From: Winslowiella toletana
GTDB taxonomy: Bacteria; Pseudomonadota; Gammaproteobacteria; Enterobacterales; Enterobacteriaceae
Length of the DNA: 64,000 nt
Assembly (NCBI RefSeq): GCF_017875465.1
Contig: NZ_JAGGMQ010000001.1
Location: 4,526,001-4,590,000 of the forward strand
Reading direction: 5' to 3'
The notes under the pieces were generated by a model. It did not search any database, was not told the origin of the DNA, and saw nothing but the letters and a program-made list of their open reading frames with translations. This document shows, piece by piece, positions 20,691 through 36,180 of this stretch; the stretch's first letter is position 1, and every line of letters starts with the position of its first letter. The translations under genes were made by a program, and so were the position numbers.

Positions 20691-20849
20691 TTACCGATCT
20701 AAAGAATAACAATTTCCGGTAAATATACGGTGTTCTGTTATCTCTTCTTCACAAAATTGTTTTGATTCATACCAGTTAAGCAATGCCTCAACACAGGTTG
20801 TGCCATCAGCTGGACAAACAGTAATGATTAAGGCAAATAACCGACTCAT
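20691..20849 (-). CDS. DUF1482-like small phage protein
   Basis: 52-residue frame starting [12 protein letters not shown], with four cysteines and ending GNCYSLDR. The pattern (hydrophobic start, VC, spaced cysteines, GNCY end) resembles DUF1482 proteins encoded in the left arm of lambdoid prophages. GAGG lies 8 bases before the ATG, and it begins 4 bases after the upstream 77-codon ORF. It sits leftward of the repressor, as expected for a left-operon relic. Function unknown. Confidence 0.55.
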
Positions 20850-20853
20850 GCAG

Positions 20854-21087
20854 TTACCTCGTTATTGATGCGTTCTTTCCCGCCGTCAGAACAAATCGCT
20901 GAGCTACTGCTGTGCTTAAATTGACTGCGATTATTGGGTCATCATAAAAGGTCGTATTAAGAGCTTTGGTTTCAGGCTTAAGACCGTTAAACCCTGCAAT
21001 ATCGCACCTGCCGTCATGTTCATATGCCTCAGGCTGGCTACTTAGCTTCAGACTGCGCCGGGTTAACTCGTGGTATTGCCCCGGCAT
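20854..21087 (-). CDS. Hypothetical 77-residue left-arm ORF
   Basis: Open frame of 77 codons beginning MPGQYHELTRRSLK, with no transmembrane helix, no recognised domain and no clear ribosome site. The same frame is open for a further 13 codons upstream without an ATG, so this may be the rear part of a truncated gene. It lies downstream of the operator-like site at 21,126 and upstream of the DUF1482-like gene, so it would be read leftward with it. Confidence 0.35.
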   Translation of the reverse strand: MPGQYHELTRRSLKLSSQPEAYEHDGRCDIAGFNGLKPETKALNTTFYDDPIIAVNLSTAVAQRFVLTAGKNASITR

Positions 21088-21125
21088 GTTCAGTTTGCCG
21101 CGAGGGATGCTTTGCTGAAACTGAA

Positions 21126-21141: not shown

Positions 21142-21227
21142 TCATAAGTAAAGTGTATGATAAACAAAATTGAACCAACAATAAAAAAACCAGCGCTATG
21201 CTGGCTTCTGTATTGCAGGGCGCAGGC

Positions 21228-21593
21228 TCAGGTTTGAGCCGCCTGACGAAGGCGGGCTAGCTCATCAAATAGTTTATCGTATCCTTCAGCTTTCTCGCGG
21301 AAAAGAGTAAGCACCTCTTGCTTACCTGCGTCAGGAAAACGTCTGAAATAGCCGATTAATTCCTTTTCAGGCGCGCTTAGCTCCAGCTGAAATGCAGTAT
21401 CGACGCCGTTCATCAACGTATCGAGGTGCTTCAGCGGCATCCCGTAATCATGCTCAATTCTGCGCGCTGCCTTTTCACCAAAAGACGATTTGCCGTTTAT
21501 CAGTTGTGATAAATAGCTCTTTTCATTTTCCGGAAGCGGTTTACCAGTAAACCACTCTTTAAGGCGGATTCGCCTGATTTCTCTTATGTCCAT
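21228..21593 (-). CDS. XRE-type phage repressor (short CI-like)
   Basis: 121-residue helix-turn-helix protein of the phage-repressor type starting MDIREIRRIRLKEWF. The YLSQLINGKSSFGEKAARRIE segment, about residues 26-46, is the DNA-binding helix pair. The C-terminal part is helical and has no LexA-like S24 peptidase domain, so it cannot self-cleave like lambda CI. Induction must then rely on another signal or an antirepressor. It is flanked on both sides by matching operator-like sequences. Confidence 0.75.
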   Translation of the reverse strand: MDIREIRRIRLKEWFTGKPLPENEKSYLSQLINGKSSFGEKAARRIEHDYGMPLKHLDTLMNGVDTAFQLELSAPEKELIGYFRRFPDAGKQEVLTLFREKAEGYDKLFDELARLRQAAQT

Positions 21594-21672: not shown

Positions 21673-22029
21673 CAGCAGCAAAAAATGCATTTAAACAGTC
21701 TGCTCATCAGCGTAAGCAGGATGCGGCAGTTAATTCAGCAAAGTGTCTGGCACCTTCACTCTGTTAACACCCGCGCGGCTCAGGTTCACTCACAGAGCCA
21801 GATAAGTCTGGGCGAAACCGGCTCAGGTAAAGGTTTATTATTTTAACGTTTTGATATTTATTAAATTAATAATTATATTTTTATCTATTTATAACGACAG
21901 GTTTACAGTGCAAGTAAAAAAACAGAATCGTTTTACTCTGCCACTTTGTACTGAGGGTTAAGAATATCTTAATTTTACAGGGTTGGAATGGAACCAACAG
22001 CAAGCTGTAAATTTGCATGGAGAGGTAAA
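21673..22029 (+). other. Decayed early right arm, no clear gene
   Basis: 357 bases where cro, cII and replication genes would be expected. Only short open frames are present, such as a 61-codon frame at 21,661-21,846 and a 17-codon frame beginning GTG at 21,908 that reads QVKKQNRFTLPLC. None shows a helix-turn-helix or a recognised family. The middle part (21,840-21,900) is very AT-rich. This looks like deletion scar tissue. Confidence 0.45.
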
Positions 22030-22236
22030 ATGATTGACAGAAAACAACTGATCAAAAATCTCCCTCGAAACGGTATGACAGTCGTACATACGGGCGATGG
22101 AAAGATTATTTCAGTACGGTCATTAAGCAACAGTGAACATATTGCAACTGTTGCTGAATTTATTGAAATTGCCCGCGCGGCGGGCTATAAATGTCATATT
22201 GTCATACCTAATGACCAACGTTACACTGCTAAATAA
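22030..22236 (+). CDS. Hypothetical 68-residue protein
   Basis: The frame starting MIDRKQLIKNLPRNGMTVV has a good GGAGAGG site 5 bases upstream. It appears to be a compact alpha/beta protein with a helix (VAEFIEIARAAG) and a strand (YKCHIVIP). No family recognised. Its place, between operator and antiterminator, suggests a phage early gene kept during deletion of its neighbours. A 14-codon longer form starting at 21,988 is possible but lacks a ribosome site. Confidence 0.5.
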   Translation: MIDRKQLIKNLPRNGMTVVHTGDGKIISVRSLSNSEHIATVAEFIEIARAAGYKCHIVIPNDQRYTAK

Positions 22237-22287
22237 ACTGGCCTGAACAACCAGTGCTGAGTGACTGCTGTGCCTTCGGAGGATATG

Positions 22288-22524
22288 ATGGCGCAGCTTC
22301 AGTTTATACAGATAAGTCAAAATATATTCACCCCGGCAATGTCCGCGGCCAGTGAGCTCCTGCACAGCATTAAAGCTGGCGCCGGGTCAGATGACGATTT
22401 TATACCTGGACGCAATAATAAATTGTCTAATAATCTTTTTCGCCTTAACAGCATATCCGGTATCTTCCGGCTTGCTGTGGGCATTTTCCGCATAACGGAA
22501 ATGCTACGCGAGGAGGCAGTATGA
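22288..22524 (+). pseudogene. DUF1367-like N-terminal fragment
   Basis: 78-codon frame beginning MAQLQFIQISQNIFTPAM, which resembles the start of DUF1367 phage proteins that are normally about 180-200 residues. After about residue 45 the similarity fades into a sequence ending EMLREEAV. A GGAGG site precedes the start. The stop overlaps the ATG of the DUF1133 gene (ATGA), so even if the protein is dead its translation may be needed for coupling. Probable internal deletion product. Confidence 0.5.
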
Positions 22525-23102
22525 TGATTTATCCATCCACTGTCGGTAAAGCCGATGCCAGTGACATTCGACTCTGTACTCTCGAAACTGTCTGGATACA
22601 AGGCAAGTTAAGAATGTGGGGGCGATGGTCTTATATAGGGGGAGGGAGTGTCAGTAATATGTTTAATCAGTTGCTTGCTTCGGGAAAAATAACCCAAAAG
22701 GCGATAAGTGAAATTTTGCACAATCTGAAAAAATCCGGATTAAGTAAAGATGAATTAGCTGCTTACTTTCGTGAGCTTCTGGCAAGTAAACACAAAAGCT
22801 CGCTGGTATTCTGTACCGACCACGAAGCGATGATTATCGACAGAGTCGTTAGCGAAGTTCTTTTCCATTATCCGCAGCTTATCAGATTGCTGCATGACCG
22901 TTTCGACGGACGCGGCAAAAGCAAAAAGCAGTTAGCGCGTGAATTCAATAACAGCCATCCCGAGCGGAGCCTGAGAACCTGTGAAACTCGAATCGATATC
23001 TGGCTTAATATTGCAGAGTCTATGCTTTACCGGCCAATGTGCGATGCGTTCGAAATAAACAGTGAAAGATTTCGCTTGCACGGCTGCGCAAATAGTGATT
23101 AA
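22521..23102 (+). CDS. DUF1133 antiterminator (Q-like late regulator)
   Basis: 193-residue protein with the DUF1133 landmarks MWGRWSYIGGGSVSNMFNQLL (about residues 33-53), a central helical region, and a C-terminal ETRIDIWLNIAESMLYRP segment. DUF1133 proteins occupy the place of Q antiterminators upstream of late genes in lambdoid prophages. An intrinsic terminator and then the holin and tail genes follow at once, which fits late-gene control by antitermination. Mechanism is inferred from family and position. Confidence 0.75.
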   Translation: MMIYPSTVGKADASDIRLCTLETVWIQGKLRMWGRWSYIGGGSVSNMFNQLLASGKITQKAISEILHNLKKSGLSKDELAAYFRELLASKHKSSLVFCTDHEAMIIDRVVSEVLFHYPQLIRLLHDRFDGRGKSKKQLAREFNNSHPERSLRTCETRIDIWLNIAESMLYRPMCDAFEINSERFRLHGCANSD

Positions 23103-23150
23103 CTTTATATACGCTTCGCAAAGCTGTATTTACTGAGAGCGAAAATCAAG

Positions 23151-23177
23151 GCCCTGATTATATGTCAGGGCTTTTTT
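23151..23177 (+). terminator. Intrinsic terminator between DUF1133 gene and holin (tR'-like)
   Basis: GCCCTGA (23,151-23,157), a 7-base loop, TCAGGGC (23,165-23,171) and then six Ts form a textbook rho-independent terminator. It sits where lambda has tR', between Q and the lysis/late genes. No clear consensus promoter was found upstream. Confidence 0.85.
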
Positions 23178-23313: not shown

Positions 23314-23643
23314 ATGCACTCCACGCCGTCGGCACTGCTGGAACAAATAATAAAATGGATAGCAATTAATTTACCTTCAATCTATGCCGGTCTCTGTGCA
23401 TTGGGCATTTCCGCCTTAATCGATGTGCGCGCCGGGAAATCAAAATTGTATACCGCTACGGGCGCATTGATTTGCGGCATCTTCGCGTTGGCTATTTCAG
23501 TTTTATTAGAGTATCTCGGGCTTCCGGCAAACTCTGGTGCTTTTGTTGGCGCGCTGGTGGGGTTTATTGGCGCGGATCGCCTGCGCGATATCGCATTGAC
23601 ACTTATTGCGCGCCGCACTCGTATGGACAATTCAGAAAAATAA
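23314..23643 (+). CDS. Lambda-family phage holin
   Basis: 109-residue protein with three hydrophobic segments (about residues 17-33, 45-66 and 72-88) and a positively charged, hydrophilic tail ARRTRMDNSEK. The fold and length match the lambda-family holins (class I). A GGAGG site precedes the ATG. It would permeabilise the inner membrane to release particles. No endolysin or Rz spanin gene follows, unlike in intact lambdoid lysis cassettes. Confidence 0.8.
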   Translation: MHSTPSALLEQIIKWIAINLPSIYAGLCALGISALIDVRAGKSKLYTATGALICGIFALAISVLLEYLGLPANSGAFVGALVGFIGADRLRDIALTLIARRTRMDNSEK

Positions 23644-23779
23644 TTTTCGTTTCTTTTTTGTCATTCAACTGGTGGCTGTTTTCCGCGCCGGACTTACTGT
23701 GCGCTGGAATTGATCCCGCCCGATGCAGGATGAACTCAGTTGCTGATTATTTACCCTGACTTTTTTGCATGGACAGATA

Positions 23780-24721
23780 ATGATGCCGAGCCTTGACGAC
23801 ATTGCCGGGAACACCGGTAACCAGCTTGCCTCTGTACTTCAGCCAGCAGGCGAAATCCTCTCCTCAAACCAGCAAATCACTTTTCGTCTTTATATAAAAC
23901 AGCTGCTGCCGCTGGATGGTTTTGCCTGCTGGGTTAGCGCGGCAATCATCAATCGGGACGTACTAAAGCGTCTGAATATCAATAACCGTTTCACAATAAC
24001 GATTAACGGCAGCCTTCACCGCCAGCTGATCCCGGAACCAGCAGAAGCCGTCTCCCGCATGCTCAACAGCATCATCTTTACGCCGACTGAGCAGATTGAT
24101 GATTTTAATCTGCAAAGCCCCGATGCGATCTGGTTAGCGGAATTTTCCGGTACACAGTTTGCCTTTGCCCGTATGGATAGCGCTTACGGCCAGGCGGGGA
24201 TCTTTCATTATCGGGGCACGGCAATAGTACCGACGATGCGCAGGCAACTTATCACTGACCCTGAGGATATTTCTGATCAGCAGGTGTTATCCAACAGTAT
24301 GCCGATCTGGTTAAGTCTCAATCAGTTTGCTCCGGTTTATCCGTCATTTCTCAACCCAGCCAGGCTGGAGCCGCCGTATATGATTGCCGATATCAGCGAG
24401 AGCCAGCCTTTGCAGGCCGCGCCTTATAGCCCGGGCCGCTGGCAGCACGCACAGGATCAGGTACGTATAACCCTGTATGGCCTGAATAACTCCGTCGCGC
24501 TGGAATACCTCGACTATGTCGTGCACAGCGCGCTGGAGGATGGAAATTTCGGCATAACCAATATCCCGGTCATCACCGATGACATATCAAATCAGACAGA
24601 GATTGACGTGCTGGAGAATAGAAAATTTATCGATTTTTCCGCCAACTATTACCAGTCTGCCGCGCGGGACATCGCCAGACAGCTGATTAAAGAAGTCATC
24701 TTTAACTATGAGGTAAAATAA
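23780..24721 (+). CDS. Tail terminator/gateway-like structural protein
   Basis: 313-residue protein opening the tail operon, starting MMPSLDDIAGNTG. The last 110 residues (DQVRITLYGLNNSVALEYLDY ... FSANYYQSAARDIARQLI) look like the tail-completion proteins of myophages that precede the sheath. The front 190 residues are unlike that family and may form a separate domain that caps the tail where a head would join. A TTG start 15 bases upstream is possible but less likely. Its stop overlaps the sheath start (TAATG). Confidence 0.5.
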   Translation: MMPSLDDIAGNTGNQLASVLQPAGEILSSNQQITFRLYIKQLLPLDGFACWVSAAIINRDVLKRLNINNRFTITINGSLHRQLIPEPAEAVSRMLNSIIFTPTEQIDDFNLQSPDAIWLAEFSGTQFAFARMDSAYGQAGIFHYRGTAIVPTMRRQLITDPEDISDQQVLSNSMPIWLSLNQFAPVYPSFLNPARLEPPYMIADISESQPLQAAPYSPGRWQHAQDQVRITLYGLNNSVALEYLDYVVHSALEDGNFGITNIPVITDDISNQTEIDVLENRKFIDFSANYYQSAARDIARQLIKEVIFNYEVK

Positions 24722-26049
24722 TGAGTTACAACATTGTTACTGTTAACGTTTCACAAACTATCGGTGCAACGCCGTCAAGCCTGCAACAGATGTCCGCTAT
24801 TATCTCGCATGGCGCCACGCTGCAAAAAAATGGCAATCCGCTACTGATTACGCACAGTGCTGAAATCACCGGGCTGGTGCAAAATACCATCGGTTCGCTG
24901 GAGGCGGAACCCTCCTCATCCGGCGCAGATGTGACACTGCGCCTGCCTGCGGGGGAGGTTATTGAGCGCGATACGGGGAGCGAAATTGATATCATCATTA
25001 GCGGTTGCGCGCCATCGGCGTGGAACGGTAAATATACCGCGACGCTGACCGCCGATGGCATGCTGAAATGGACCATCGCCCCTTCAACGTTGTCAGGAAA
25101 ACCAGTAACGCTGGGTGTATTTACGCTGGCAAGCAGTGAAGAGCTGGTTACGGCGGTAAATACTTTTTTCGCCCAGGGGAATTCTGTTGGTACTTATCTG
25201 CTGGAACTGGGTGATCAGGGCGGGAAAACATCAGCACAGGTCGCCGCGTTAAAGCGTTATCTGGAAGAACCAGCTAAGCGCTTTTATGCCTGGCTGGTTC
25301 CGTCTCACTGGGACGGCGATGCTGATTTTATTGCACTGGCCAGGTTATATACCGGTAATGAAGCGATGCACTATTTTTTCACGCTGACCGCCGCACCGAC
25401 TGAAGCCAGTTACAGTAGTCCATACGCCAATATCAAATCGGTTGTCGCGGTTTGCGATGACAGCTGGCCGGTGACCAACGCAGCGGCAGCCGTAATGTGG
25501 AATCTGGTTTCCGCCTCGCCTGGCGAAATCAATAAAGTCCCACCGATGGCTTTTCGCTTTCTGCTGGCGGTCAATGCCTGCCAGGCAAAACCGTCACTTC
25601 TTACCACCATGCTAAAGAATCATATCAACTACGTCGGCACTGGCGCAGAAGGAGGGATCGCCAATACCATGCTGGTTAAAGGGGTGACCAGCGACGGCAA
25701 CGATATGACGTACTGGTACTCAGTGGACTGGGTGCAGATCAACGTCGATACGATGCTGGCGAACGCGGTAATCAACGGCAGCAATAATCCGATTAACCCA
25801 CTGTATTACGATCAGGATGGCATCGATCGTCTGCAGATGGTTGCCCAGGGCGTATTTAATACCGGTATGGCTTACGGCCTGGTTAACGGTCACACCGCGG
25901 TTAACGCCGTACCATTTAAAACCTACGTAACGAATAACCCCAACGATTACGGAATTGGCCGTTACGCAGGGCTGTCTGCGACTTATACCCCTATGCGCGG
26001 TTTTGTGGAAATTATCTTCAACATTAACGTGACGATGCAGCTGTCTTAA
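24721..26049 (+). CDS. Contractile tail sheath protein (DUF3383 type)
   Basis: 442-residue protein with the sequence style of DUF3383 sheaths: an N-terminal MSYNIVTVNVSQTIG strand, a long central domain with WLVPSHWDGD, and a C-terminal TPMRGFVEIIFNINVTMQ strand used for mesh formation between sheath subunits. Its place directly before a tube-length protein supports the call. Sheath contraction drives the tube through the target envelope. Identification is by recall, without a profile search. Confidence 0.8.
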   Translation: MSYNIVTVNVSQTIGATPSSLQQMSAIISHGATLQKNGNPLLITHSAEITGLVQNTIGSLEAEPSSSGADVTLRLPAGEVIERDTGSEIDIIISGCAPSAWNGKYTATLTADGMLKWTIAPSTLSGKPVTLGVFTLASSEELVTAVNTFFAQGNSVGTYLLELGDQGGKTSAQVAALKRYLEEPAKRFYAWLVPSHWDGDADFIALARLYTGNEAMHYFFTLTAAPTEASYSSPYANIKSVVAVCDDSWPVTNAAAAVMWNLVSASPGEINKVPPMAFRFLLAVNACQAKPSLLTTMLKNHINYVGTGAEGGIANTMLVKGVTSDGNDMTYWYSVDWVQINVDTMLANAVINGSNNPINPLYYDQDGIDRLQMVAQGVFNTGMAYGLVNGHTAVNAVPFKTYVTNNPNDYGIGRYAGLSATYTPMRGFVEIIFNINVTMQLS

Positions 26050-26063
26050 AAAGGAACTGAACA

Positions 26064-26504
26064 ATGCATAATCCAATGATCAGCCCCGGCGTGCTTAATC
26101 GTGTGAGGGCCAGCGCTAAATTTACCGATCACCCTGAACTGAATGTCTCCGCCTCCTCTCTCGCGAAGGAAGGTGTCGAGATAACCTTTCAGGGCAATAT
26201 CGTTGAAGCTCTACCGGCAATGACCGGAATCGTGCAGTCGCCTCAGCCTTATGTGCTGGTGCAGGCCAAAATTCATCTGTTACGCAGCCAGGCGATGGCG
26301 GCTCGGTATAAGAAGCAGATCGAAAATGATGGTCTTATCGGGGATGTGCGTCTTTATACCGACAGCAGTACTTTTGGCGAGTTTGATATGGCCAATACCG
26401 CGATTACTTCGGTTGGCGATATGACCTTTGCCGGAGGAGACCCGGGGGTGGTGATTACGCTTACGGGTACTTATTACATCAACTCGGCCTTATGGGAGCT
26501 CTGA
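26064..26504 (+). CDS. Tail tube protein (DUF3277 type)
   Basis: 146-residue protein of the size and order expected of a DUF3277 tube subunit, following the sheath by 14 bases with an AAGGA site. Beta-rich sequence includes GVEITFQGNIVEALPAMTG and the closing VVITLTGTYYINSALWEL. The tube is the rigid inner needle of the particle. The stop overlaps the next start (TGATG). Confidence 0.78.
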   Translation: MHNPMISPGVLNRVRASAKFTDHPELNVSASSLAKEGVEITFQGNIVEALPAMTGIVQSPQPYVLVQAKIHLLRSQAMAARYKKQIENDGLIGDVRLYTDSSTFGEFDMANTAITSVGDMTFAGGDPGVVITLTGTYYINSALWEL

Positions 26505-27088
26505 TGAAAATCTCGCGTGTAATGAATCTGATTGTGCCGGTAGAAACGGAGTCGGGAGCGGGCTGGATCCATTCAACGCCAATTTCCCGGGAGATTTACA
26601 AACAGCATTTCCTGATCCTCAGCAAAACTTTTGCCGCCATTTTTACCGAAGGGTTAGGCACCGTGGCCGGGCCGCGAGTCGCCTGTCTGATGCTGGAGAA
26701 AATAGCTGTTGAAGCGGGTGTCTGGGACGGTGCGAATGGTGTGCGCAATACGCTGGTGGGGGAAATTATCCGCCTTTCAAACCTCGTTTATGCGCAGGAA
26801 GGAAAAGGCTGGCAGACTCAACCGCTGGATGTGGCTATCGAAAAAGGCATCGTTGTGCTGGATGAGATCATTGGTGAACTGGTTTTTTTTACCTGTGTCT
26901 CTGCGATAAACAAACCGGATCAGGCGAGGGGACTTATGGAGGTGGTGGCTGGTCTGTGGAACAGTGCCACCACATCATTGAGCCTTATGGCCTGGATCGA
27001 TTCATTAGTGATATCGAAACCAGGCGGCAATTCTGGCGGGATGGAGAACACGTCGTTAGCGACATCCTCGACTACTGTGCCGGTGTAG
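26504..27088 (+). CDS. Tail assembly chaperone, unshifted form
   Basis: 194-residue protein between tube and tape measure, the fixed position of tail assembly chaperones. The start MKISRVMNLIVP at 26,504 overlaps the tube stop and has GGGAG upstream; the ATG four codons earlier is less likely. The body is helical (about residues 30-170). Inside it, codons 127-129 carry the slippery run T_TTT_TTT, which lets part of the ribosomes enter the -1 frame. The two products would be 194 and about 226 residues. Confidence 0.72.
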   Translation: MKISRVMNLIVPVETESGAGWIHSTPISREIYKQHFLILSKTFAAIFTEGLGTVAGPRVACLMLEKIAVEAGVWDGANGVRNTLVGEIIRLSNLVYAQEGKGWQTQPLDVAIEKGIVVLDEIIGELVFFTCVSAINKPDQARGLMEVVAGLWNSATTSLSLMAWIDSLVISKPGGNSGGMENTSLATSSTTVPV

Positions 27089-27183
27089 GTTTTCGCCAGT
27101 TATTTATCGATACCCCGCTGAACCTGAAAACAGCAGCCCAGCTACGTGAACTGCTGAAATGCACCCCTCCCGGAGGCTTTTAA
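26878..27183 (+). CDS. -1 frame extension of the tail assembly chaperone
   Basis: The -1 frame opens right after a TGA at 26,875 and stays open to the TAA at 27,181. It is entered by slippage at 26,884-26,890, giving 129 upstream plus 97 new residues. The extension reads as real protein, with a helical IEPYGLDRFISDIETRRQFW stretch and a Gly-rich linker just after the shift. Its stop overlaps the tape measure start (TAATG). This copies the G/GT and E/E+E' design of other tailed phages. Confidence 0.7.
   Translation, partial: TGFFYLCLCDKQTGSGEGTYGGGGWSVEQCHHIIEPYGLDRFISDIETRRQFWRDGEHVVSDILDYCAGVGFRQLFIDTPLNLKTAAQLRELLKCTPPGGF
26884..26890 (+). promoter_or_regulatory. Programmed -1 frameshift site T_TTT_TTT
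   Basis: The heptamer fits X_XXY_YYZ in the chaperone frame (codons GTT TTT TTT). It lies 9 bases after the last stop in the -1 frame, so only a shift at this point yields the long product. Confidence 0.75.
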
Positions 27184-28973: not shown

Positions 28974-28975
28974 AA

Positions 28976-29638
28976 ATGGCATTAAATTATTTCGGCAAGG
29001 CCTGGCAACTGGCATTTGAAATCTCACCAATCATGCTGGTTGATGGGCTGGCTGCCACTATTCCCGGCGGCACATTACCCATTGCGGCGTTTACGGAAGG
29101 GCTAAGTGTTGTCAATGGGCTTTTACACGGTGAACTCGGCACCGGACCTACCGCACGTTTTATGCCGATGGCCGGGACCACTCTTATTCAACAAGATATC
29201 GGCAATCTCAATTTCTATAACCAGACAACGGCAGCTAATGCCGTCGTGAACAAACCCAATCGGATCCTGATGCAAATGCAGCGTCCCGTCGCCACCCGCG
29301 ACGGCGGCTATGCGACAAAATCACTGACGTTTACCGCACTGAAAATGGCGCTTGATAAACATAATCAGTGCGGCGGCAGCTATAACGTGCTTACTCCGGC
29401 CTTTATCTATACCGGATGCCTGTTGCGCGCAGTAACAGATAACTCTGGTTTCTCAACCCAGAACAAACAGGTGCAGCACGCCTGGATGTTTGAGTTTGAG
29501 CAGCCGCTGTTAACCCTGTCCCAGCTTGAGGCGGTGCTTGGTAACCTGATGAACAAATTTGAATCAGGTTTGCCCGCAACCGGCGGGCTGGGCTGGACAA
29601 CCCATGGAACTCAATTAGCGGGGCCACCGCCATTATGA
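28976..29638 (+). CDS. Baseplate-associated protein after tape measure
   Basis: 220-residue protein, beginning MALNYFGKAWQLAFEISPIML, that starts 3 bases after the tape measure stop. The sequence has an early hydrophobic, Gly-rich region (about 15-50), followed by mixed alpha/beta sequence. In myophage operons this slot holds a baseplate or tail-tip protein that binds the tape measure end. No family name can be given with confidence. It overlaps the next gene by four bases. Confidence 0.5.
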   Translation: MALNYFGKAWQLAFEISPIMLVDGLAATIPGGTLPIAAFTEGLSVVNGLLHGELGTGPTARFMPMAGTTLIQQDIGNLNFYNQTTAANAVVNKPNRILMQMQRPVATRDGGYATKSLTFTALKMALDKHNQCGGSYNVLTPAFIYTGCLLRAVTDNSGFSTQNKQVQHAWMFEFEQPLLTLSQLEAVLGNLMNKFESGLPATGGLGWTTHGTQLAGPPPL

Positions 29639-29901
29639 CCACTTATATTCCGTTCAGACCCAACGACCAGCTACCGTTTTCGTTTCAGGCAACAATTGGT
29701 GGCGTGGATCTTTTTGCCTCTGTGCCGTTTAACCTTTATGCCAATCGTTTCTATCTGAAACTGGTCGATGGCCAGGGAAACACTGCCGTGTATCTTCCTC
29801 TGATAGATTCACCGGATGATTACGACATCAATCTTGCGCTGCCCTGGGCGCCGGGTTCACTGGTTTATCGTGCTAGCAGCCGCCAGTTTGAGGTAACTTA
29901 G
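29635..29901 (+). CDS. Baseplate plug-like protein
   Basis: 88-residue beta-rich protein, MTTYIPFRPNDQLPFSFQAT, resembling the short baseplate-plug proteins of phages that carry DUF3383 sheaths. The RFYLKLVDGQGNTAVYLPL stretch is the core. It begins in the ATGA overlap with the preceding stop and ends just before the hub gene. Confidence 0.55.
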   Translation: MTTYIPFRPNDQLPFSFQATIGGVDLFASVPFNLYANRFYLKLVDGQGNTAVYLPLIDSPDDYDINLALPWAPGSLVYRASSRQFEVT

Positions 29902-29902
29902 G

Positions 29903-30916
29903 ATGAGATATTACAGACTGGAAATCGCCGACAAATATGGCAGACCGGCAATCGCCCGCGACGGCACGTTAATCGGGCCATTCGACACATCAGTCAGTGC
30001 AGGCAGTGGGTTGCATATTGATTTCGATGCGACGATTGCCGGTTACGATATTGTTAAAAGCGGAACCAGGATTACCCTGTACGGTTTGCCCGTTTCAATG
30101 CTGAGTCAAAGCGTCCAGCTTAGCGGATACTATTTAAAACTTAAGGCCGGTTTTACTGCGGGATTGCCTTTAGCGAATCGGAATCAGGCAGACTGGATAA
30201 TCAGTGGTGAGATTTATAACTGTTATGCGAACTGGATCGGTACAGAACAGTCACTGAATTTTATCGTTAACCCCTGTCCGCTATTTAACGACGAAGGGCA
30301 AGCGCTCTGTATTACGCTGTCGGGAAAGAAAGGGGATAATCTTGGTGAGGTGGTGAAACAGGCGCTAAAAGGAGCTTACCCAAACACTGATGTGATAACC
30401 ACAGTCAGCAACAAATTAGCATTACCAGAGGATGCCACTGGCGTTTGCCCACGAATGGAACCATTTTCCACCATGGTACGCAGTCTGTCGAAAAGTATCA
30501 TTAAAGACGATGGCTATAGCGGCGTGCAGATCGTGAGGCAAAACGGGGCTATTCATATTTTCGATAACTGGTGGGTTAGCAGGGACGACGCTAAACAGAT
30601 ATTGCCGCAGGAATTAATCGGCCAGCCAACATGGGCAGGATTGAACCAGGTTTCTTTTACATGCCCTTTAAGAGCCGATCTGCGCTGTGGCGAAAAGATT
30701 AGCCTGCCGCAAAATATTATTTCCGGCCCTTCATCTTTGCTGTCGGTTAATAACCAACACTCCAGCCCCATGCTGCGGAATAATGTGAATTTCTCCGGAA
30801 TATTTTTGATTTCCTCTGTGCGTCATGTCGGCAAGTACCTTTTAGCTGACAGCAGTAATGCCTGGGTTACCATTTATGAAGCGCTTGCGCAGCATCGTGA
30901 GGCCGAAAATGAGTGA
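29903..30916 (+). CDS. Baseplate hub protein (gpD/gp27-like)
   Basis: 337-residue beta-rich protein located immediately before the spike gene, the normal place for the hub (P2 gpD, Mu gp44). Segments such as GLHIDFDATIAGYD and ITLYGLPVSMLSQ near the N terminus match the strand pattern of hub proteins that form the first ring below the tube. It overlaps the next gene by eight bases (ATGAGTGA). Confidence 0.62.
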   Translation: MRYYRLEIADKYGRPAIARDGTLIGPFDTSVSAGSGLHIDFDATIAGYDIVKSGTRITLYGLPVSMLSQSVQLSGYYLKLKAGFTAGLPLANRNQADWIISGEIYNCYANWIGTEQSLNFIVNPCPLFNDEGQALCITLSGKKGDNLGEVVKQALKGAYPNTDVITTVSNKLALPEDATGVCPRMEPFSTMVRSLSKSIIKDDGYSGVQIVRQNGAIHIFDNWWVSRDDAKQILPQELIGQPTWAGLNQVSFTCPLRADLRCGEKISLPQNIISGPSSLLSVNNQHSSPMLRNNVNFSGIFLISSVRHVGKYLLADSSNAWVTIYEALAQHREAENE

Positions 30917-31613
30917 TGCGCAGAAATTCCCCTTTGCTAAAGCACTAACCAATATTCTCACCACTGCGGGGCAGAATAATGACGCGTTACGCGGCCGTGC
31001 ATTACCCTGCCATGTAGTGGCAGTAAAAGGGCAGATTGTTACTGTCCAGTTCGATCTGCTGCCTGAGGGGGTTCACTACCCGCAGATAACCATACCGATC
31101 GCAACCTTTGCTTATATTCGCTATCCGGTTCAGCCCGGTGATAAAGGTGTCACGATTCCCGCCGATGTCTCGCTACGCGGGGTATCCGGTTTGGGTACAG
31201 GCATTGCCAGCCTGTCTCTGTCGCCTTCACTGACGCCGCTGTTTTTTGTTCCGCTCGCTAACGTCAACTGGTCTGATGAAGACTCACAAAAGGTCACCCT
31301 GTATGGCCCGGAAGGGGTGATTTGTAAAACTGTTGGCGGGGATGCATCGGTAATCATTGAGCCAGGTAAAGTGACACTGAAAGCTGCCCATATCTGCCTT
31401 GAAGGGACAATTCATCTTAACGGCCAGATTGTTCAGGATGCAGAGCAGATTAGCGGCGATACTGCCGCATCACTAATTGGCCCGCTCAGCGTACAGCACG
31501 ATGCAATCATCAACGGTGTCAGCGTCAGCCAGCACGGCCATGACATCAAAAATGTGCAGGGCGGTAGCAGCACCATTACTTCAGAAAAACCCAATTCCGG
31601 AGGCAGGCAATGA
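30909..31613 (+). CDS. Membrane-puncturing spike (gpV/Gp138-like)
   Basis: 234-residue spike. The N-terminal OB-fold part (about 1-130) is followed by a repetitive beta-helix-like stretch (KVTLYGPEGV, GKVTLKAAHICLEGTIHLNG). The tip carries SVSQHGHDIKNVQGG. The HGH motif is the iron-binding apex seen in P2 gpV-type spikes. The start MSDAQKFPF at 30,909 is chosen because it overlaps the hub stop. The ORF upstream of it has no ribosome site. Confidence 0.75.
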   Translation: MSDAQKFPFAKALTNILTTAGQNNDALRGRALPCHVVAVKGQIVTVQFDLLPEGVHYPQITIPIATFAYIRYPVQPGDKGVTIPADVSLRGVSGLGTGIASLSLSPSLTPLFFVPLANVNWSDEDSQKVTLYGPEGVICKTVGGDASVIIEPGKVTLKAAHICLEGTIHLNGQIVQDAEQISGDTAASLIGPLSVQHDAIINGVSVSQHGHDIKNVQGGSSTITSEKPNSGGRQ

Positions 31614-31957
31614 GAACCTGGGGAAGAATCACTGACGAACACGGTCAGGCAAAATGGATTGCGGTGGAAGCCGATGAGAAAGGGGATTTCTCCTGGGGCT
31701 GGTTAACCACGCTGATCCAGACGCTAAAACTTAGCCTGGGTGAATCCCCGTTCTACGCCCAGTACGGTATGCCGACGCAGCAGTCAATCGTTACGCAAAT
31801 ACATCCCGATTACTATGTCAACATCACGCAGCAGCAGTTTGCTGGCTACTTTGCCTCGTTATCGATCAGCAAAACAGAGGGGGCTGACCGTCCCACTTAT
31901 GAGATACAAGCCGTGTTTCTTAACGGAGCATCATTCAGCGAGCGTATCGCGGTTTAG
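31610..31957 (+). CDS. Baseplate wedge protein (gp25/gpW-like)
   Basis: 115-residue protein with LKLSLGESPFYAQYGMP near residue 42 and a C-terminal PTYEIQAVFLNG strand. Size, context and motif match gp25-type wedge proteins, which start sheath polymerisation. It overlaps the spike stop by four bases. A 119-base gap with no evident gene or terminator then separates it from the gpJ gene. Confidence 0.68.
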   Translation: MRTWGRITDEHGQAKWIAVEADEKGDFSWGWLTTLIQTLKLSLGESPFYAQYGMPTQQSIVTQIHPDYYVNITQQQFAGYFASLSISKTEGADRPTYEIQAVFLNGASFSERIAV

Positions 31958-32076
31958 TCCTGAAGCTGACTAACCCTGCACCATTACCGCGATAAAGGTA
32001 AATGGATTGCTGATTAATCTCGGTGAAATATTGGTTCCATCTCGTTAAACATCCTTATGCATATAACAGGTAATCT

Positions 32077-33303
32077 ATGTCAGATCTCCCCGTCATTATT
32101 ACTCAATCCGGCGCACAACCCACACCGCCCAGGACATTGCTGTCCAACCTTATTACCCATGTTGCCGCAATCGTCCCCGGTTACACTGCAAATCTGCCTG
32201 CTGGTTTAATTACTGATTTAGCCAGCACGGCCACCGGTGCAATTGCCCTTATCGACAGCGCGATGGTAGAGACTATTAACGCCGTCACGCCCTACGGTGC
32301 TAATCTGCCAATGCTGATGCAGCTGGGGCATATCTACGGCATTCCGCAGGGAAAAGGCTATAATACCTCGGTTAATGTCACCTTTATAAGCCTGCCGGGG
32401 TTTGTGATCCCCAAAGGTTTTATTGTTTCTGATGGAAACTACCAGTATGTGGTACAAAATAATACTGTGGTGCCAACCGGCGGGCAAACGAAGCCCGTTT
32501 ACTGTCTGGCGACAACCGGAGGGAGCTGGGCGGTGCCTGCCGGCTCGGTCACGCAGATTATTACCTCAGTGCCCGGCACCATTACTTTGACTTGTACCAA
32601 CGTCACTGCGGGGGTTCCCGGCGCGGAGAAACAGTCCGAATCCTCGTATCGCGCTCAGGTTATGCAGGCCGGGATGGTAACCGCTCAGGGAGTGCCTGGC
32701 TTTCTGAAAACCCTGCTGCAAAAAGTATCCGGCGTTAAAAGTAATCTGATCGCCTACAGGAATGTGAGCACCGGCAAATGGGCGCTTATTGTCGGCGGCG
32801 GCGATCCCTACGAAGTCGGACTGGCCGTCTATAATGCTATCCCTGATATTTCGGTTCTGACTGCGGACGTGCTCGATGGCGAGGGGAATAAACCCGATAG
32901 TATTACCATTACAATAACGGATTATCCGGATAACTATAATATACCGGTTATCCTGCCGACGTCGCAAATGGCATCGGTGATCCTCACATGGAATATTCGG
33001 GTTGCTGATCAACTGGATCCTGATAGCGTCTCTGTCGTCGCCATTACGCCACTGGTGGACTATATCAATGATATTCCCATCGGCGAGCCGATAAACACAT
33101 ATCAGATCAAGTCGATATTTCTCAGCGCAATCTCGCCCCTGATCAGCCCTACGCAGATATCACTGATTGACGTCAGTATCGGTATCAACGGCGTTGTTGT
33201 CCCACCCTTGACCGGGACGGGGCTGATATACGGTGGTGAGTATGGTTATTTCACCACAGACCCATCACGCGTTACGGTGCAACGATATGGCAAATCCGAT
33301 TGA
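32077..33303 (+). CDS. Baseplate J/gp47-like wedge protein
   Basis: 408-residue protein with the gpJ-like order: an N-terminal helical domain, ITSVPGTITLTCTNVTAGVPGAEKQSESSYRAQV region near 165-195 (turn followed by 'E-S-x-x-x-Y/F-R-x-R' pattern), and a beta-rich C-terminal domain. It connects hub to wedge in the baseplate. The next gene begins 17 bases before its stop. Confidence 0.75.
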   Translation: MSDLPVIITQSGAQPTPPRTLLSNLITHVAAIVPGYTANLPAGLITDLASTATGAIALIDSAMVETINAVTPYGANLPMLMQLGHIYGIPQGKGYNTSVNVTFISLPGFVIPKGFIVSDGNYQYVVQNNTVVPTGGQTKPVYCLATTGGSWAVPAGSVTQIITSVPGTITLTCTNVTAGVPGAEKQSESSYRAQVMQAGMVTAQGVPGFLKTLLQKVSGVKSNLIAYRNVSTGKWALIVGGGDPYEVGLAVYNAIPDISVLTADVLDGEGNKPDSITITITDYPDNYNIPVILPTSQMASVILTWNIRVADQLDPDSVSVVAITPLVDYINDIPIGEPINTYQIKSIFLSAISPLISPTQISLIDVSIGINGVVVPPLTGTGLIYGGEYGYFTTDPSRVTVQRYGKSD

Positions 33304-33913
33304 TAAAATCATTCCATCCTATCCATTTGTGCAATACAACGATGATCCAAATGTTGTGGCCTTTTTTACTGCATACAACACAATGGCGCAACACTACCTG
33401 ACCGCATTTAATAAACTGACATTACCTTACTGGCCAGACGATGGTATCAATGGCTATCTGCTCGACTGGATTACAGCAGGTATATATGGACATGGCAGAC
33501 CGTATCTGAAAATTTCCACGGAAAGTATAGCGAAGGGAGCCTATAACAGCGTGGAGTATAACACGGTCCCTTATGCAAAATTAAAAAGCTACTGGCCGGG
33601 ACAAACACAATATCTGCCAGATGAATACTTTAAGCGCATACTGACGTGGAATTTTTATAAAGGGGATGGTTTTCAGTTTTGTACCGGCTGGTTAAAGCGG
33701 CGTATAGCAAGGTTTATATATGGCAAGTCAGGTGGGGATTTTACCCTTCAGAGTGCATTCAATATCAGTGTGTCGAGTTCAGCCGGAACCTTTAATCTCA
33801 CGGTGCCTGAATATGGTGACGGGGTTGGGCAATTTCTGAAAACGGCAATTGAGCAAGGGTTAGTTAATCTTCCCTTTATTTACACCTTCAATGTGACGGT
33901 AAATAAACCATGA
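33287..33913 (+). CDS. gpI-like tail protein (DUF2612 type)
   Basis: 208-residue protein that follows gpJ, the usual place of gpI-like proteins connecting the baseplate to the fibre. The start MANPIDKIIPSYPFVQYND is chosen because it opens the conserved part; the longer ORF runs back into the gpJ gene. A conserved core includes WPDDGINGYLLDWITAGIYG. It overlaps the fibre gene by four bases. Confidence 0.65.
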   Translation: MANPIDKIIPSYPFVQYNDDPNVVAFFTAYNTMAQHYLTAFNKLTLPYWPDDGINGYLLDWITAGIYGHGRPYLKISTESIAKGAYNSVEYNTVPYAKLKSYWPGQTQYLPDEYFKRILTWNFYKGDGFQFCTGWLKRRIARFIYGKSGGDFTLQSAFNISVSSSAGTFNLTVPEYGDGVGQFLKTAIEQGLVNLPFIYTFNVTVNKP

Positions 33914-35154
33914 TTACAGGATTCGGTAATAATGTGGTGTCTTCGCTCGCATCTGATATCACCGCGACACAGACAATATTTGCAGTAAAACCTGGCTCAG
34001 GCGAGCAGTTTGCTAAATTGTTGACGACGGATATTGCCAATCCCGACAGTCTGCATCGAATTTATGCAAAGCTTACGCTCACGGATGCTCAGCAAACCGT
34101 GTTTGAAATCTGCCATCTGATGGCGGTATCACAGGACGCCTTAACCGTCATTCGCGGACAGGAGGGAACCAGGGCGAAGGGCTGGTCGTTAAATGATGCG
34201 GTAGCAAACTTTGCGACACGCGGTTCCGAACAAAATTATGTGCAGATTGAGCAGCTGCAGGCGGGAGACTTCACGACCGCCAGCGCGGGCGGCACGGCGA
34301 ACGCCCTGACGGTTTCTCTGCCCTCAACGTATTTTAATAACAGCGCGACAGACTGGCAGTTAAAAACGCCGCTGATTATTACCCCGACAGCAGCGAATAC
34401 GGGGAGCGCTACATTGCAGGTAACGCTTTCAGGGATCGTACTCGGCATATTTCCACTGTATAAAGGTAACCGAAGGGAACTTGATAGCGGTGATTTAGTC
34501 AGTGGGGTGCCGTTTTGCTGTTTACTCGATCAGAGCAAAGAATTCTTTAATGTGATAAACCCTACCGCTTTATATCACTATTCGGTTGATCAGATGTACC
34601 CAGTAGGAATCGTGACCTGGTTTGCACAGAATAAAAATCCGAACCTATTATTCCCCGGCACAAGCTGGGTATATATCGGTGAGAACAGAACGATACGCTT
34701 AGCAAGGGCAGATGGCGCCGATATTATGACAACCGGCGGTGCTGATGCCGTTACGCTGGCTTCTGGGAATTTACCGGCACATAGTCATAGTTTCTCGGCT
34801 AATACCAGCAGCTTTGATTACGGTACGAAGACCAGCAGTAGTTTTGACTATGGGACCAAAACGACTAACTCTGCGGGGGCGCATACCCATAATGCCTGGC
34901 AGTTTACCTTAGATGGGGCGGTACAAAGTTACAGAATTTCTTTGCATGATCGATGGTTCGGCAATAACGTGGCCGCTACCAATAGCGCGGGAGCGCATAC
35001 GCATACTGTCGCTATCGGGGCGCACACCCATACAACAGGCATAGGTGCGCATGCTCATAGCGTATCAGGAACAACCGAAAACACTGGAGGCGATAGTGCA
35101 TTTTCGGTTGTTAACACCTTTGTGAAACTTATGGGGTGGTACAGAAGCGCCTGA
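33910..35154 (+). CDS. Tail fibre / receptor-binding protein
   Basis: 414-residue fibre. The N-terminal 150 residues probably bind the baseplate. Residues about 245-414 form a tip with a repeated SFDYGTKT motif and five HxH pairs (HSH, HTH three times, HAH). This resembles the iron-coordinating needle tip of T4 gp37-like fibres. The C terminus FVKLMGWYRSA is also typical of such fibres. It determines which cells the particle kills. No fibre-assembly chaperone follows. Confidence 0.75.
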   Translation: MITGFGNNVVSSLASDITATQTIFAVKPGSGEQFAKLLTTDIANPDSLHRIYAKLTLTDAQQTVFEICHLMAVSQDALTVIRGQEGTRAKGWSLNDAVANFATRGSEQNYVQIEQLQAGDFTTASAGGTANALTVSLPSTYFNNSATDWQLKTPLIITPTAANTGSATLQVTLSGIVLGIFPLYKGNRRELDSGDLVSGVPFCCLLDQSKEFFNVINPTALYHYSVDQMYPVGIVTWFAQNKNPNLLFPGTSWVYIGENRTIRLARADGADIMTTGGADAVTLASGNLPAHSHSFSANTSSFDYGTKTSSSFDYGTKTTNSAGAHTHNAWQFTLDGAVQSYRISLHDRWFGNNVAATNSAGAHTHTVAIGAHTHTTGIGAHAHSVSGTTENTGGDSAFSVVNTFVKLMGWYRSA

Positions 35155-36180
35155 TTATGTCTGGTTGTGAGCCAGAACGCGTGAGCGCAATGCAATAAAT
35201 CGGTTGTAAACCTCATCAACGCTCAATAACCCGACATTCCTTTCCGGAGCCTCTAACATTTCGTTTGCAACCCCCCATGGTCCCCAGAACCAGGCGTCGC
35301 TGTCGCCAAACATGGCAACAGTCGGGACGCCAGCCCCAGCAGCAATATGCAATGCACCTCCGTCGCTTGTAAGGATCTGATCGCAGAGTGACATTGCCGC
35401 CATCAGCTCTCTGAGGCTTTTAGTCTCGACAGCAGTGATAAACGAACCCTCTAATGCCGCGATGATTTGCTGTGCTTTATTATCATCCCCGGGGTGCTCT
35501 TTATTACTGGTTTTGCCTGGTGACCAAAAGAGCAGAATATGGCATTTTTCACGCTGGTTCAGCCGCTGCGCGATTTCGACGAATTTTTCTGCCTGCCAGC
35601 GTTGCATTGGCTTTCTGGCGCTGATCTGTAACCCATACACTGGCAAATTTTCAGGAATGGACAGTCGGGTTTGTATGAAGCTGATTTCCTCCGCTGTGAT
35701 ATAAAGCTCCAGTGGCCCTGGCTCCCGGTAAACGCCGATGGGTTTTGCCAGTTCGGCAAGTAACTGTACGATATGACGCCTTTCTGTCGGCTGCGGGATA
35801 AGGTCTGTAATCGCCGCCGGTGAATTATTACCGATAGCGATTACCCTTTTGGCGCCGGATAATCTGGCCCACTGAAGAGGGCGTTTATCCCATTTTTCGC
35901 GTGCGATTATCGCCACATCATAACGTGCAAGCCGCAACTCAACACAGGTTTTCAGACGGCGCAGGATCACGCCCAATGCTGACTGGTGAGGTTTACGATG
36001 GTGTAGTTTGCTATAAAGATGTCTGCGTCCAATATGCGGATTATTGTCCAGAACAGATTGATTGTAGGTATTAACTAAAACATCGACTTTAGTGCCGTAA
36101 ACATGCGCGATGCAGGCTATCAGCGGAGTGGTTAACACTAAATCACCGATGTTATCCCTGCGTATAATAAGTATTTTCAT
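35155..36180 (-). CDS. Glycosyltransferase family 9 (heptosyltransferase-like)
   Basis: 341-residue GT-B enzyme related to WaaC/WaaF/WaaQ. It opens MKILIIRRDNIGDLVLTTPL (the N-terminal GT9 signature) and has the sugar-nucleotide site SDGGALHIAAGAGVPTVAMF near residue 275. Such enzymes add heptose-like sugars to LPS core in the cytoplasm. It is convergent with the fibre gene with no gap, which suggests it belongs to the tailocin locus. The start at 36,180 has AAAGGA upstream; a 56-codon longer frame exists but a related sequence elsewhere shows stops there. Confidence 0.85.
   Translation of the reverse strand: MKILIIRRDNIGDLVLTTPLIACIAHVYGTKVDVLVNTYNQSVLDNNPHIGRRHLYSKLHHRKPHQSALGVILRRLKTCVELRLARYDVAIIAREKWDKRPLQWARLSGAKRVIAIGNNSPAAITDLIPQPTERRHIVQLLAELAKPIGVYREPGPLELYITAEEISFIQTRLSIPENLPVYGLQISARKPMQRWQAEKFVEIAQRLNQREKCHILLFWSPGKTSNKEHPGDDNKAQQIIAALEGSFITAVETKSLRELMAAMSLCDQILTSDGGALHIAAGAGVPTVAMFGDSDAWFWGPWGVANEMLEAPERNVGLLSVDEVYNRFIALRSRVLAHNQT

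What the first reader, a model, noticed from the sequence alone, without database searches (positions are those of the whole stretch)
20691..36180. Headless contractile-tail locus: probable R-type tailocin beside icd
A full set of contractile-tail parts (terminator-like, sheath, tube, frameshifted chaperone, tape measure, plug, hub, spike, gp25/gpJ/gpI-like wedge, fibre) is present in phage order. Integrase, terminase, portal, capsid and replication genes are absent. The genes are tightly coupled with no frame breaks. Control genes of lambdoid type precede them. This suggests a domesticated killing particle of the DUF3383-sheath lineage rather than the P2-like lineage of carotovoricin. Whether this exact lineage has been described cannot be judged from sequence.
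Basis: partly seen in the sequence, partly recalled or inferred. Interest (0 to 1): 0.85.

Follow-up and report, generated by a model that had tools for sequence, protein, structure and literature searches.

The report
Headless phage tail beside icd gene
A bacterium related to Erwinia carries, next to its icd gene, the complete tail of a contractile virus with no head, kept intact by natural selection in two species, so it is probably a bacteria-killing particle, although this strain has lost the enzyme that would let it out.

Summary
Thirteen intact contractile-tail genes (23783-35154) match, in order, the tail module of phage Rac-SA53. Its terminase-portal-capsid-neck block is missing; an 11-codon stub of the last neck gene remains. 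Winslowiella arboricola has the same headless cluster at the same icd site. The 79 other IMG/VR loci examined all keep the capsid gene.

Selection fits a headless tail. Positions invariant in head-bearing kin changed at 26 of 115 in the tail terminator, the head-facing part, but at 19 of 569 in ten other tail genes. Seven terminator changes are shared by both species, so the head was probably lost before they split. Best reading: an R-type tailocin domesticated from a Rac-SA53-like lambdoid myophage.

The same chromosome holds a second, dissimilar contractile cluster, with no head gene between its lysis genes and terminator, a full lysis cassette and a repressor carrying a peptidase S24 domain. 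It could supply lysis in trans. Particle production and killing are untested.

The parts
17475..18725 (+). icd (isocitrate dehydrogenase), complete; left neighbour
   Evidence: Pfam PF00180; 99.8% aa identity to W. arboricola icd
20434..20578 (+). 145-bp copy of the icd 3' end, probable scar of an icd-integrating element other than the tail cluster
   Evidence: 93% identical; eight other genomes of the genus carry an extra icd 3' piece starting near residue 354-360, five of them downstream of icd on the same contig
21228..21593 (-). 121-aa phage transcriptional regulator with no peptidase domain found
   Evidence: phrog_5736; no Pfam hit
21988..22236 (+). small phage ORF of unknown function
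   Evidence: phrog_340
22261..22524 (+). ORF with weak NinB/Orf-type match
   Evidence: phrog_319, E 5.7e-4
22524..23102 (+). Q-type late antiterminator
   Evidence: phrog_753, Pfam DUF1133 and Phage_antitermQ; 52% to Rac-SA53 q
23148..23174 (+). terminator-like hairpin between Q and holin, the expected place for Q readthrough
   Evidence: z -3.1
23314..23643 (+). holin, 109 aa, intact
   Evidence: phrog_126, Pfam Phage_holin_3_1
23644..23760 (.). place of the lost endolysin: no endolysin ORF here; W. arboricola has a 210-aa GH19-domain endolysin at the same position
23761..23796 (+). stub of the last 11 codons of the neck gene rac48, FFAWTDNDAEP*
   Evidence: W. arboricola has KTSFIAWTDNDAEP*, Rac-SA53 KGSFIAWIDNNAES*
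23783..24721 (+). tail terminator (collar), 312 aa from ATG
   Evidence: phrog_6359; 56% to rac49; about 130 residues of the AlphaFold2 model match phage neck terminators and the pyocin R2 collar
24721..26049 (+). tail sheath, 442 aa
   Evidence: phrog_205 tail sheath E 1e-41; 69% to rac50
26064..26504 (+). tail tube, 146 aa, assigned by order
   Evidence: phrog_6566, unknown function; 69% to rac51
26504..27183 (+). tail assembly chaperone pair: zero frame to 27088, -1 frame to 27183, slip at TTTTTTA 26885
   Evidence: same site in 5 of 5 sequences; phrog_11810, unknown function
27189..28973 (+). tape measure with transglycosylase SLT domain
   Evidence: phrog_7694, Pfam SLT E 3e-19; 43% to rac53
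28976..29638 (+). tail protein of unknown function (rac54 homologue)
   Evidence: phrog_7750; 65%
29635..29901 (+). small tail protein (rac55 homologue)
   Evidence: phrog_8737; 62.5%
29903..30916 (+). baseplate hub
   Evidence: phrog_196 E 4.8e-24
30906..31613 (+). baseplate spike
   Evidence: 64% to Rac-SA53 bppV; Pfam match below cut-off
31610..31957 (+). small baseplate protein in the gp25 position
   Evidence: phrog_7986, unknown function; 70% to rac59
32077..33303 (+). baseplate J-like wedge
   Evidence: phrog_6, Pfam Baseplate_J
33287..33913 (+). baseplate protein in the gpI position
   Evidence: phrog_8212, unknown function; 61% to rac64
33910..35154 (+). tail fibre: N-terminal 222 aa of Rac-SA53 type, C-terminal distal-fibre module
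   Evidence: residues 282-400 match T4 gp37 2xgf
35155..36348 (-). GT9 glycosyltransferase, neighbour of the cluster in both species; not part of the tail
   Evidence: Pfam Glyco_transf_9, no PHROG hit; relatives elsewhere in neighbourhoods that look host-like by eye

Best explanation
This is an R-type tailocin locus domesticated from a lambdoid temperate myophage of the Rac-SA53 kind. One deletion, ending inside the last codons of the neck gene rac48, removed terminase, portal, capsid and neck but left the terminator and everything distal to it. This happened before the window species and W. arboricola separated (inferred from shared changes). A repressor holds the operon off. When it is lifted, Q antiterminates a late promoter and the tail genes are read. 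The frameshifted chaperone loads the tube on the tape measure, the terminator caps it, and fibres bind the surface of a target cell. Sheath contraction then drives the spike and tube through the envelope (established for R-type tailocins, not shown here). Release needs holin plus endolysin. W. arboricola has both. The window strain has lost the endolysin and would have to borrow one, most plausibly from its second contractile cluster at about 0.99 Mb, or it no longer releases particles. Shown: anatomy, homology, shared headlessness, selection pattern, lost endolysin, second cluster. Inferred: assembly, induction, killing, trans-lysis.
For: All 13 tail genes pair in order with Rac-SA53 genes, and no queried head gene of that phage matches the window. 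The same headless cluster sits at the same icd site in W. arboricola. 79 of 79 other IMG/VR loci (the best 80 of at least 588, one being the window) keep capsid, rac47 and rac48, and 72 of 79 also have terL and portal. The headless pair is one clade (support 1.0) inside head-bearing phages. dN/dS is 0.065-0.335 over 13 tail genes, with dS 0.26-0.72 against 0.15-0.65 in 11 neighbouring genes. The terminator changed at 26 of 115 positions invariant in head-bearing kin, ten other tail genes at 19 of 569, Fisher p 9e-11. Of 15 qualifying head-bearing control loci the highest was 3/117, against window 19/115 and W. arboricola 17/115. Part of the terminator model matches the pyocin R2 collar. terL and capsid relatives were not found in either genome; the terL query did find a relative in G319.
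Against: The endolysin is gone in the window strain. The regulator has no peptidase domain, and no exact LexA-type palindrome lies in the locus, only one-mismatch sites such as 21885 and 23124. By the terminator search only 2 of 37 genus genomes carry the headless cluster. dN/dS is above that of head-bearing pairs in most tail genes tested, not only the terminator, and the ten other genes also changed at invariant sites more often (14/569 window, 12/569 W. arboricola) than in the control loci (median 0.5%). So some relaxation is general. Changed terminator sites were not mapped on a head-contact face. The control genes (regulator, Q, holin) have saturated or near-saturated dS and did not co-evolve with the tail. 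IMG/VR is a collection of predicted viruses, which favours loci with heads. No expression, particle or killing data exist.
Confidence: 0.74

Rival explanations
1. A decaying prophage: the head was lost by chance and the tail genes are intact only because the loss is recent. The window copy, without endolysin, is dead.
For: Endolysin lost, early region mostly gone, icd scar next to it, dN/dS above that of head-bearing pairs in most tail genes tested, and invariant sites of the ten other genes changed more often than in control loci.
Against: Two species share the headless state, and 3,713 codons have no stop. Outside the terminator only 19 of 569 invariant positions changed. Uniform decay would hit all genes alike, not mainly the terminator. 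Seven shared terminator changes suggest head loss before the split.
Confidence: 0.18
2. The two species lost the head independently and the tail signal reflects earlier life as complete phages. This overlaps with the tailocin reading in function and differs in when the head was lost.
For: The preserved rac48 remnants are not identical in length (11 clear codons in the window, about 14 in W. arboricola), and the upstream junctions differ.
Against: Same site, same retained first gene, both stubs end in AWTDNDAEP, and 7 terminator changes at otherwise invariant sites are shared. The window junction can be explained by a later deletion that also took the endolysin.
Confidence: 0.12
3. The cluster supplies tails in trans to heads of another phage or satellite.
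For: Tail modules can be used in trans in principle (recalled); one phage-lysozyme relative elsewhere in the genome lies in what looks like a P2-like prophage (identity recalled from ORF starts, not tested).
Against: The head-facing terminator is the part that has lost conservation, opposite to what tail donation needs. No relative of the matching capsid or terminase was found.
Confidence: 0.04

Closest known systems
Escherichia phage Rac-SA53 (KU052037)
   Same: Gene order and 43-70% identity over the tail module, Q gene, frameshift site, fibre N-terminus
   Different: It has terminase, portal, capsid, neck, endolysin and other genes that are absent here
Winslowiella arboricola icd-adjacent cluster (NZ_JAODIM010000043)
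   Same: Same site, same headless gene set, 78-94% aa identity in the tail genes
   Different: Keeps a GH19-domain endolysin; has a replication-initiation gene before Q (phrog_2509) and mesX in place of the BrnTA and icd scar
Carotovoricin of Pectobacterium (PMC13195805, passages)
   Same: R-type, with holin, sheath, tube, tape measure, baseplate and fibre genes; conserved by descent in one genus
   Different: Sits between tolC_2 and ybiB. Pectobacterium DUF3383 sheaths resemble the second cluster of this genome (81-82%). That those proteins are carotovoricin is inferred; the carotovoricin sequence itself was not compared
Enterocoliticin of Yersinia enterocolitica (PMC13030884, section 36 and passages)
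   Same: Headless contractile cluster preceded by a CI-type repressor and Q antiterminators
   Different: Authors describe the apparatus as Mu-like; sequence not available here, so homology not tested
Pantailocins of Pantoea (seen only in passages of PMC12873547; the original paper is not held)
   Same: R-type tailocins of the same bacterial family
   Different: Island lies between rpoD and sulP, not at icd; homology not tested
Dickeyocin P2D1 (PMC10719855, passages) and R-pyocins
   Same: Headless R-type particle
   Different: Dickeyocin is P2-like; no P2 or Mu record was among the matches of the window sheath or J protein at E 1e-5

Membership tests
R-type tailocin | Contractile sheath, tube, tape measure, hub, spike, wedge and fibre in one operon | tested here: met
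   tube and gp25 position by order only; that it is one operon is inferred from spacing
R-type tailocin | No capsid, portal or terminase | tested here: met
   for the window; for the genome (relatives of this lineage only; the capsid query had no positive control in that call)
R-type tailocin | Tail terminator kept as the first structural gene | tested here: met
   (about 130 of 318 residues matched)
R-type tailocin | Fixed chromosomal place, inherited and kept by selection | tested here: met
   two species only:
R-type tailocin | Own lysis cassette (holin and endolysin) | tested here: not met
   holin only in the window; both in W. arboricola. A lysis cassette shared by two P. chlororaphis tailocins is reported (PMC12090994 passage), so not strictly required
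R-type tailocin | Particles that kill related bacteria | not testable with these tools
   needs induction, microscopy and spot tests
Rac-SA53-type myophage | Complete head and packaging genes | tested here: not met
DUF3383 sheath (Pfam PF11863) | Sheath reaches the Pfam model | tested here: inconclusive
   window sheath no hit; 13 of 25 members of alignment A2 hit
P2-like tailocin | Tail homologous to P2 | tested here: not met
   no P2 record among the matches of sheath or J; that the collection holds P2 is assumed

The most novel reading that the evidence does not exclude
A strain with two dissimilar headless contractile weapons in which one has shed its endolysin and depends on the other's lysis cassette. 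The icd tailocin (holin only) is released by the lysozyme and spanin of the DUF3383 cluster at about 982.7-995.4 kb of the chromosome, whose repressor carries a peptidase S24 domain. W. arboricola kept the endolysin, and no protein under its name is listed among the 120 best relatives of the second cluster's sheath (many rows carry no name), so it may lack that cluster.
Probability: 0.35. Interest if true: 0.6.

Novelty: new member of a known kind. Interest (0 to 1): 0.5.

Why it matters
R-type tailocins of Pseudomonas are described as arising independently from P2-like and Mu-like phages (PMC12090994, passages). This looks like a further, independent domestication, from a Rac-SA53-like lambdoid myophage, and two species preserve it. 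It offers a possible signature for dating domestication: the tail terminator, which meets the head in a phage, loses its conservation while the rest of the tail largely keeps it. The same test can be applied to other headless tail clusters to tell a maintained weapon from a dead prophage. The loss of the endolysin in a strain with a second contractile cluster makes lysis sharing directly testable.

Tried and rejected
P2-like or Mu-like origin: rejected, because no such phage record was among the matches of the sheath or J protein. An att duplication bounding the tail cluster: only one extra icd 3' piece exists in the window, and it lies before the cluster, so it marks another element. GT9 as a phage-borne self-protection gene: relatives lie in neighbourhoods that look host-like by eye, not searched for families, so left undecided. 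SOS control by LexA: no exact palindrome within the locus; one-mismatch sites exist at 21885 and 23124 among others, and one-mismatch matches over the whole window exceed chance (31 against 16.9 expected), so not excluded. Endolysin search with PF00182 was uninformative because its controls were silent; replaced by a search with the W. arboricola protein. The stretch 23560-23790 found no phage match. Solved-structure searches with the sheath profile and tube gave nothing. Enterocoliticin record not held; pantailocin paper not held. Literature: no paper held tailocin + icd + Erwinia or tailocin + Winslowiella. DUF3383 returned 5 papers, none on tailocins by title. Tailocin + lambdoid returned 7, none describing such a locus by title or abstract start. 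Searches gave the tailocin papers that I read in passages.

In scripts I labelled the ORF at 21988-22236 'cII'; no result supports that name.

Rows dropped before counts: 11 of 87 loci in the tree because a gene was missing or short. In one search only 17 of 87 loci met the rule of having all 11 genes and at least 15 references. In one search, 70 pairs from 47 loci fell in the chosen dS range, J and I had only 3 pairs each, and chaperone, p88, tape measure and fibre were not tested. In some searches tape measure and fibre were left out. Four Rac-SA53 genes of the tail region (rac58, ant, rac61, rac62) and the genes before its CII were not in the query set.
Full report
What is there. Downstream of icd (17475-18725) lies a run of 13 tail genes, 23783-35154, all on the plus strand with overlapping or closely spaced ends (largest gap about 120 bp) and no internal stop over 3,713 codons. 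PHROG names the sheath (phrog_205, E 1e-41), hub (phrog_196), wedge (phrog_6), fibre, Q antiterminator and holin. Pfam adds Baseplate_J, an SLT transglycosylase domain in the tape measure, Phage_antitermQ and Phage_holin_3_1. The tube, the small baseplate protein in the gp25 position and several further tail proteins belong to PHROG families of unknown function and are assigned by order and by their Rac-SA53 counterparts. A T6A slip site in the zero frame of the chaperone at 26885, with a -1 frame open to 27183, is at the same place in the window, W. arboricola, Rac-SA53, Pantoea stewartii and G031: 5 of 5 looked at.

Where it comes from. In the phage collection the sheath finds 14 records, best Escherichia phage Rac-SA53 (68.8%) and Actinobacillus phage pPE4 (68.5%); none is P2 or Mu. 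Rac-SA53 carries terS, terL, rac41 to rac48, then rac49 (terminator), rac50 (sheath) and so on. tblastn of 33 of its proteins on the window finds Q (52%) and 13 tail proteins from rac49 to the first fibre gene, at 43-70% identity. It finds nothing for terS to rac48, holins or endolysin. So the window has the Rac-type tail with the head block cut out.

The junction. In head-bearing relatives the neck gene rac48 runs into rac49 and ends ...SFIAWIDNNAES (Rac-SA53) or ...SFVAWIGDDAES (Pantoea, G031). The window retains FFAWTDNDAEP* and W. arboricola KTSFIAWTDNDAEP* directly before the terminator. The window stub is 23761-23796, and nucleotide similarity to W. arboricola begins exactly at 23761. 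In W. arboricola the gene before the stub is a 210-aa endolysin with a GH19 domain (L002 8281-8913), itself preceded by holin and Q. In the window only 117 bp separate holin and stub. The W. arboricola endolysin finds no relative in the window genome; of 4 genomes searched it matches only its own.

The first gene kept. The 318-aa ORF has no Pfam hit. An AlphaFold2 model on a 45-sequence alignment has mean pLDDT 75.8. About 130 of its residues match phage neck terminators, best 8hdr E 1.7e-4, with the pyocin R2 collar 6u5f at rank 8 (E 2.0e-3) and lambda gpU lower down; TM-scores normalised to the whole model are only 0.2-0.3. The deletion therefore appears to spare exactly the cap that ends a tail.

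Shared headlessness. G319 also has a terL relative at 59%, so it looks like a full, divergent relative. terL relatives: 2 of 37 genomes (G319, and G313 at E 8e-4), neither of them G000 or G299. Capsid relatives: 0 of 2 (no positive control in that call). Wider samples, each including the window genome, gave the sheath in 4 of 295 family genomes, and the terminator in 4 of 392 family and 2 of 394 order genomes. Head genes are present beside the tail in the P. stewartii, G031, G180 and G236 loci. In IMG/VR, at least 588 stretches matched and 80 were kept. One of these is the window itself (L061). Of the other 79, 79 carry capsid, rac47 and rac48 upstream, and 72 also carry terL and portal; three of the seven without those two have short flanks. 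IMG/VR holds predicted viruses, so it favours loci with heads. A tree of terminator, sheath and tube (76 of 87 loci kept) puts the window and W. arboricola together with support 1.0, inside a clade (0.985) with four head-bearing loci.

Selection. Between the window and W. arboricola, dN/dS is 0.065-0.335 over the 13 tail genes, and dS is 0.26-0.72. The eleven neighbouring genes give dS 0.15-0.65 (0.31-0.65 without icd), which fits descent at this site with the hosts. Regulator and holin have dS above 1.2 and Q is saturated, so the control region was exchanged or evolved separately. Compared with up to 70 pairs of head-bearing loci, the terminator stands out: 0.339 against a median of 0.077 (0 of 69 pairs as high). 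The sheath (0.133 against 0.113; 1 of 70) and spike (0.126 against 0.081; 7 of 55) lie closer. Tube, hub, p220 and the gp25-position protein are also above every head-bearing pair (0 of 67, 54, 59 and 57), so there is some general relaxation.

The sharper test takes columns at least 97% invariant in head-bearing relatives. The terminator departs at 26 of 115 (9 window only, 7 W. arboricola only, 7 shared with the same residue, 3 different in both). The ten other tail genes examined depart at 19 of 569 (6 of them shared with the same residue; Fisher p 9e-11). The tape measure and fibre were not in this set. As a control, each locus with all 11 genes and at least 15 references was scored the same way. 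The 15 qualifying head-bearing loci gave at most 3/117 in the terminator, the window 19/115 and W. arboricola 17/115. In the ten other genes the window gave 14/569 and W. arboricola 12/569, above the control median of 0.5%, so the rest of the tail is not wholly unchanged either, but far less affected. The changed terminator sites lie on both parts of the protein (19 of 74 invariant columns in residues 1-200, 7 of 41 after) and were not mapped on a head-contact face. The part that meets the head in a phage has thus lost conservation in both lineages and on their common stem, while the rest is nearly frozen. I read this as a tail that has worked without a head since before the species split. The controls are not independent of each other and the pair is a single case.

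Lysis and the second cluster. A Phage_lysozyme search of the window genome gave three places above cut-off. One, at about 993.4 kb, lies in a second contractile cluster on the minus strand, about 982.7-995.4 kb. It comprises a repressor with HTH and Peptidase_S24 domains, holin, lysozyme, Rz spanin, a neck terminator (Pfam Phage_tail_terminator_9), sheath (DUF3383, E 1e-101), structural protein in the tube position, chaperone, tape measure, hub, spike, wedge, J and fibre. No head gene lies between the lysis genes and the terminator. Three of its proteins fall in PHROG families filed under 'head and packaging' (phrog_280, 349, 587), named only as virion or structural proteins; none is called capsid, portal or terminase. 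Its surroundings were not searched for head genes beyond these stretches. It is not a copy of the icd cluster: the best local match of the two sheaths covers 79 residues at E 8e-4. Its sheath is 81-85% identical to proteins of Erwinia rhapontici, Serratia, Pantoea and Pectobacterium. No protein named for the W. arboricola strain is among the 120 listed, whereas that strain's proteins are listed by name for the icd sheath and terminator. A cluster shared by both species should have appeared, so W. arboricola may lack it, though many rows have no name and the list is cut at 120. Two divergent tailocins sharing one lysis cassette are known in Pseudomonas chlororaphis (PMC12090994, passage). That the window strain does the same is a hypothesis. 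The other two lysozyme places look like a P2-like prophage and a type VI secretion region, judged from memory of their neighbours only.

Control. A 121-aa regulator (phrog_5736, no peptidase domain found), an ORF of unknown function, a weak NinB-like ORF and Q precede the tail. A strong hairpin with a T run (z -3.1) lies between Q and holin, the layout expected for Q-dependent readthrough. No exact LexA-type palindrome is in the locus; one-mismatch sites include 21885 and 23124. Enterocoliticin has a comparable CI plus Q arrangement (PMC13030884, section 36), so lambdoid control of a tailocin is not new.

Place. Between icd and the cluster lie a BrnTA toxin-antitoxin pair and a 145-bp piece of the icd 3' end. 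Extra icd 3' pieces also occur in G302, G308, G312, G313, G319, G323, G324 and G293; in G308, G312, G313, G319 and G324 they lie about 2-58 kb downstream of icd on the same contig. Pieces in G306 may be an assembly break, and one in G326 is weak. So icd is a common integration site in this genus. The W. arboricola locus lacks the piece, so it probably belongs to a different, later element. In G119 and G303, icd is followed within about 0.5-1.7 kb by the relative of window ORF 40821-41144, so relative to these two genomes the whole 18.7-40.8 kb stretch is accessory.

Verdict. The tailocin reading is well supported as ancestry and maintenance and untested as activity. The window copy is probably compromised in self-release. 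Kind: a new member of the R-type tailocins, from a phage branch for which I found no described tailocin in the searches named under Tried and rejected.

Noticed in passing
G000:C1 about 982668-995441 (L146, L148, L149): Second contractile-tail cluster with complete lysis cassette, repressor with a Peptidase_S24 domain, DUF3383 sheath and no head gene between lysis genes and terminator; a probable carotovoricin-type tailocin.
   Followed up: partly
window 19632-20250: BrnT/BrnA toxin-antitoxin pair between icd and the icd 3' fragment.
   Followed up: no
window 20434-20578: icd 3' fragment missing its last codons; eight other genomes of the genus have similar extra fragments, five of them downstream of icd on the same contig, marking icd as an integration hot spot.
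   Followed up: partly
window 35155-36348: GT9 glycosyltransferase abutting the fibre gene in both species; G000 has another copy (57%) in a neighbourhood that looks host-like by eye. Could alter the cell surface, but no link to the tail was shown.
   Followed up: partly
L002:2715-4750: mesX and a MetE-like gene (the latter named from memory) between icd and the tail cluster in W. arboricola, absent at that place in the window.
   Followed up: no
IMGVR_UViG_2917948106_000003 (L061): IMG/VR already lists this stretch as a 15,490-bp viral contig starting at window 20691.
   Followed up: yes
window 23644-23760: 117 bp between holin and the rac48 stub with no phage match; origin unknown.
   Followed up: partly
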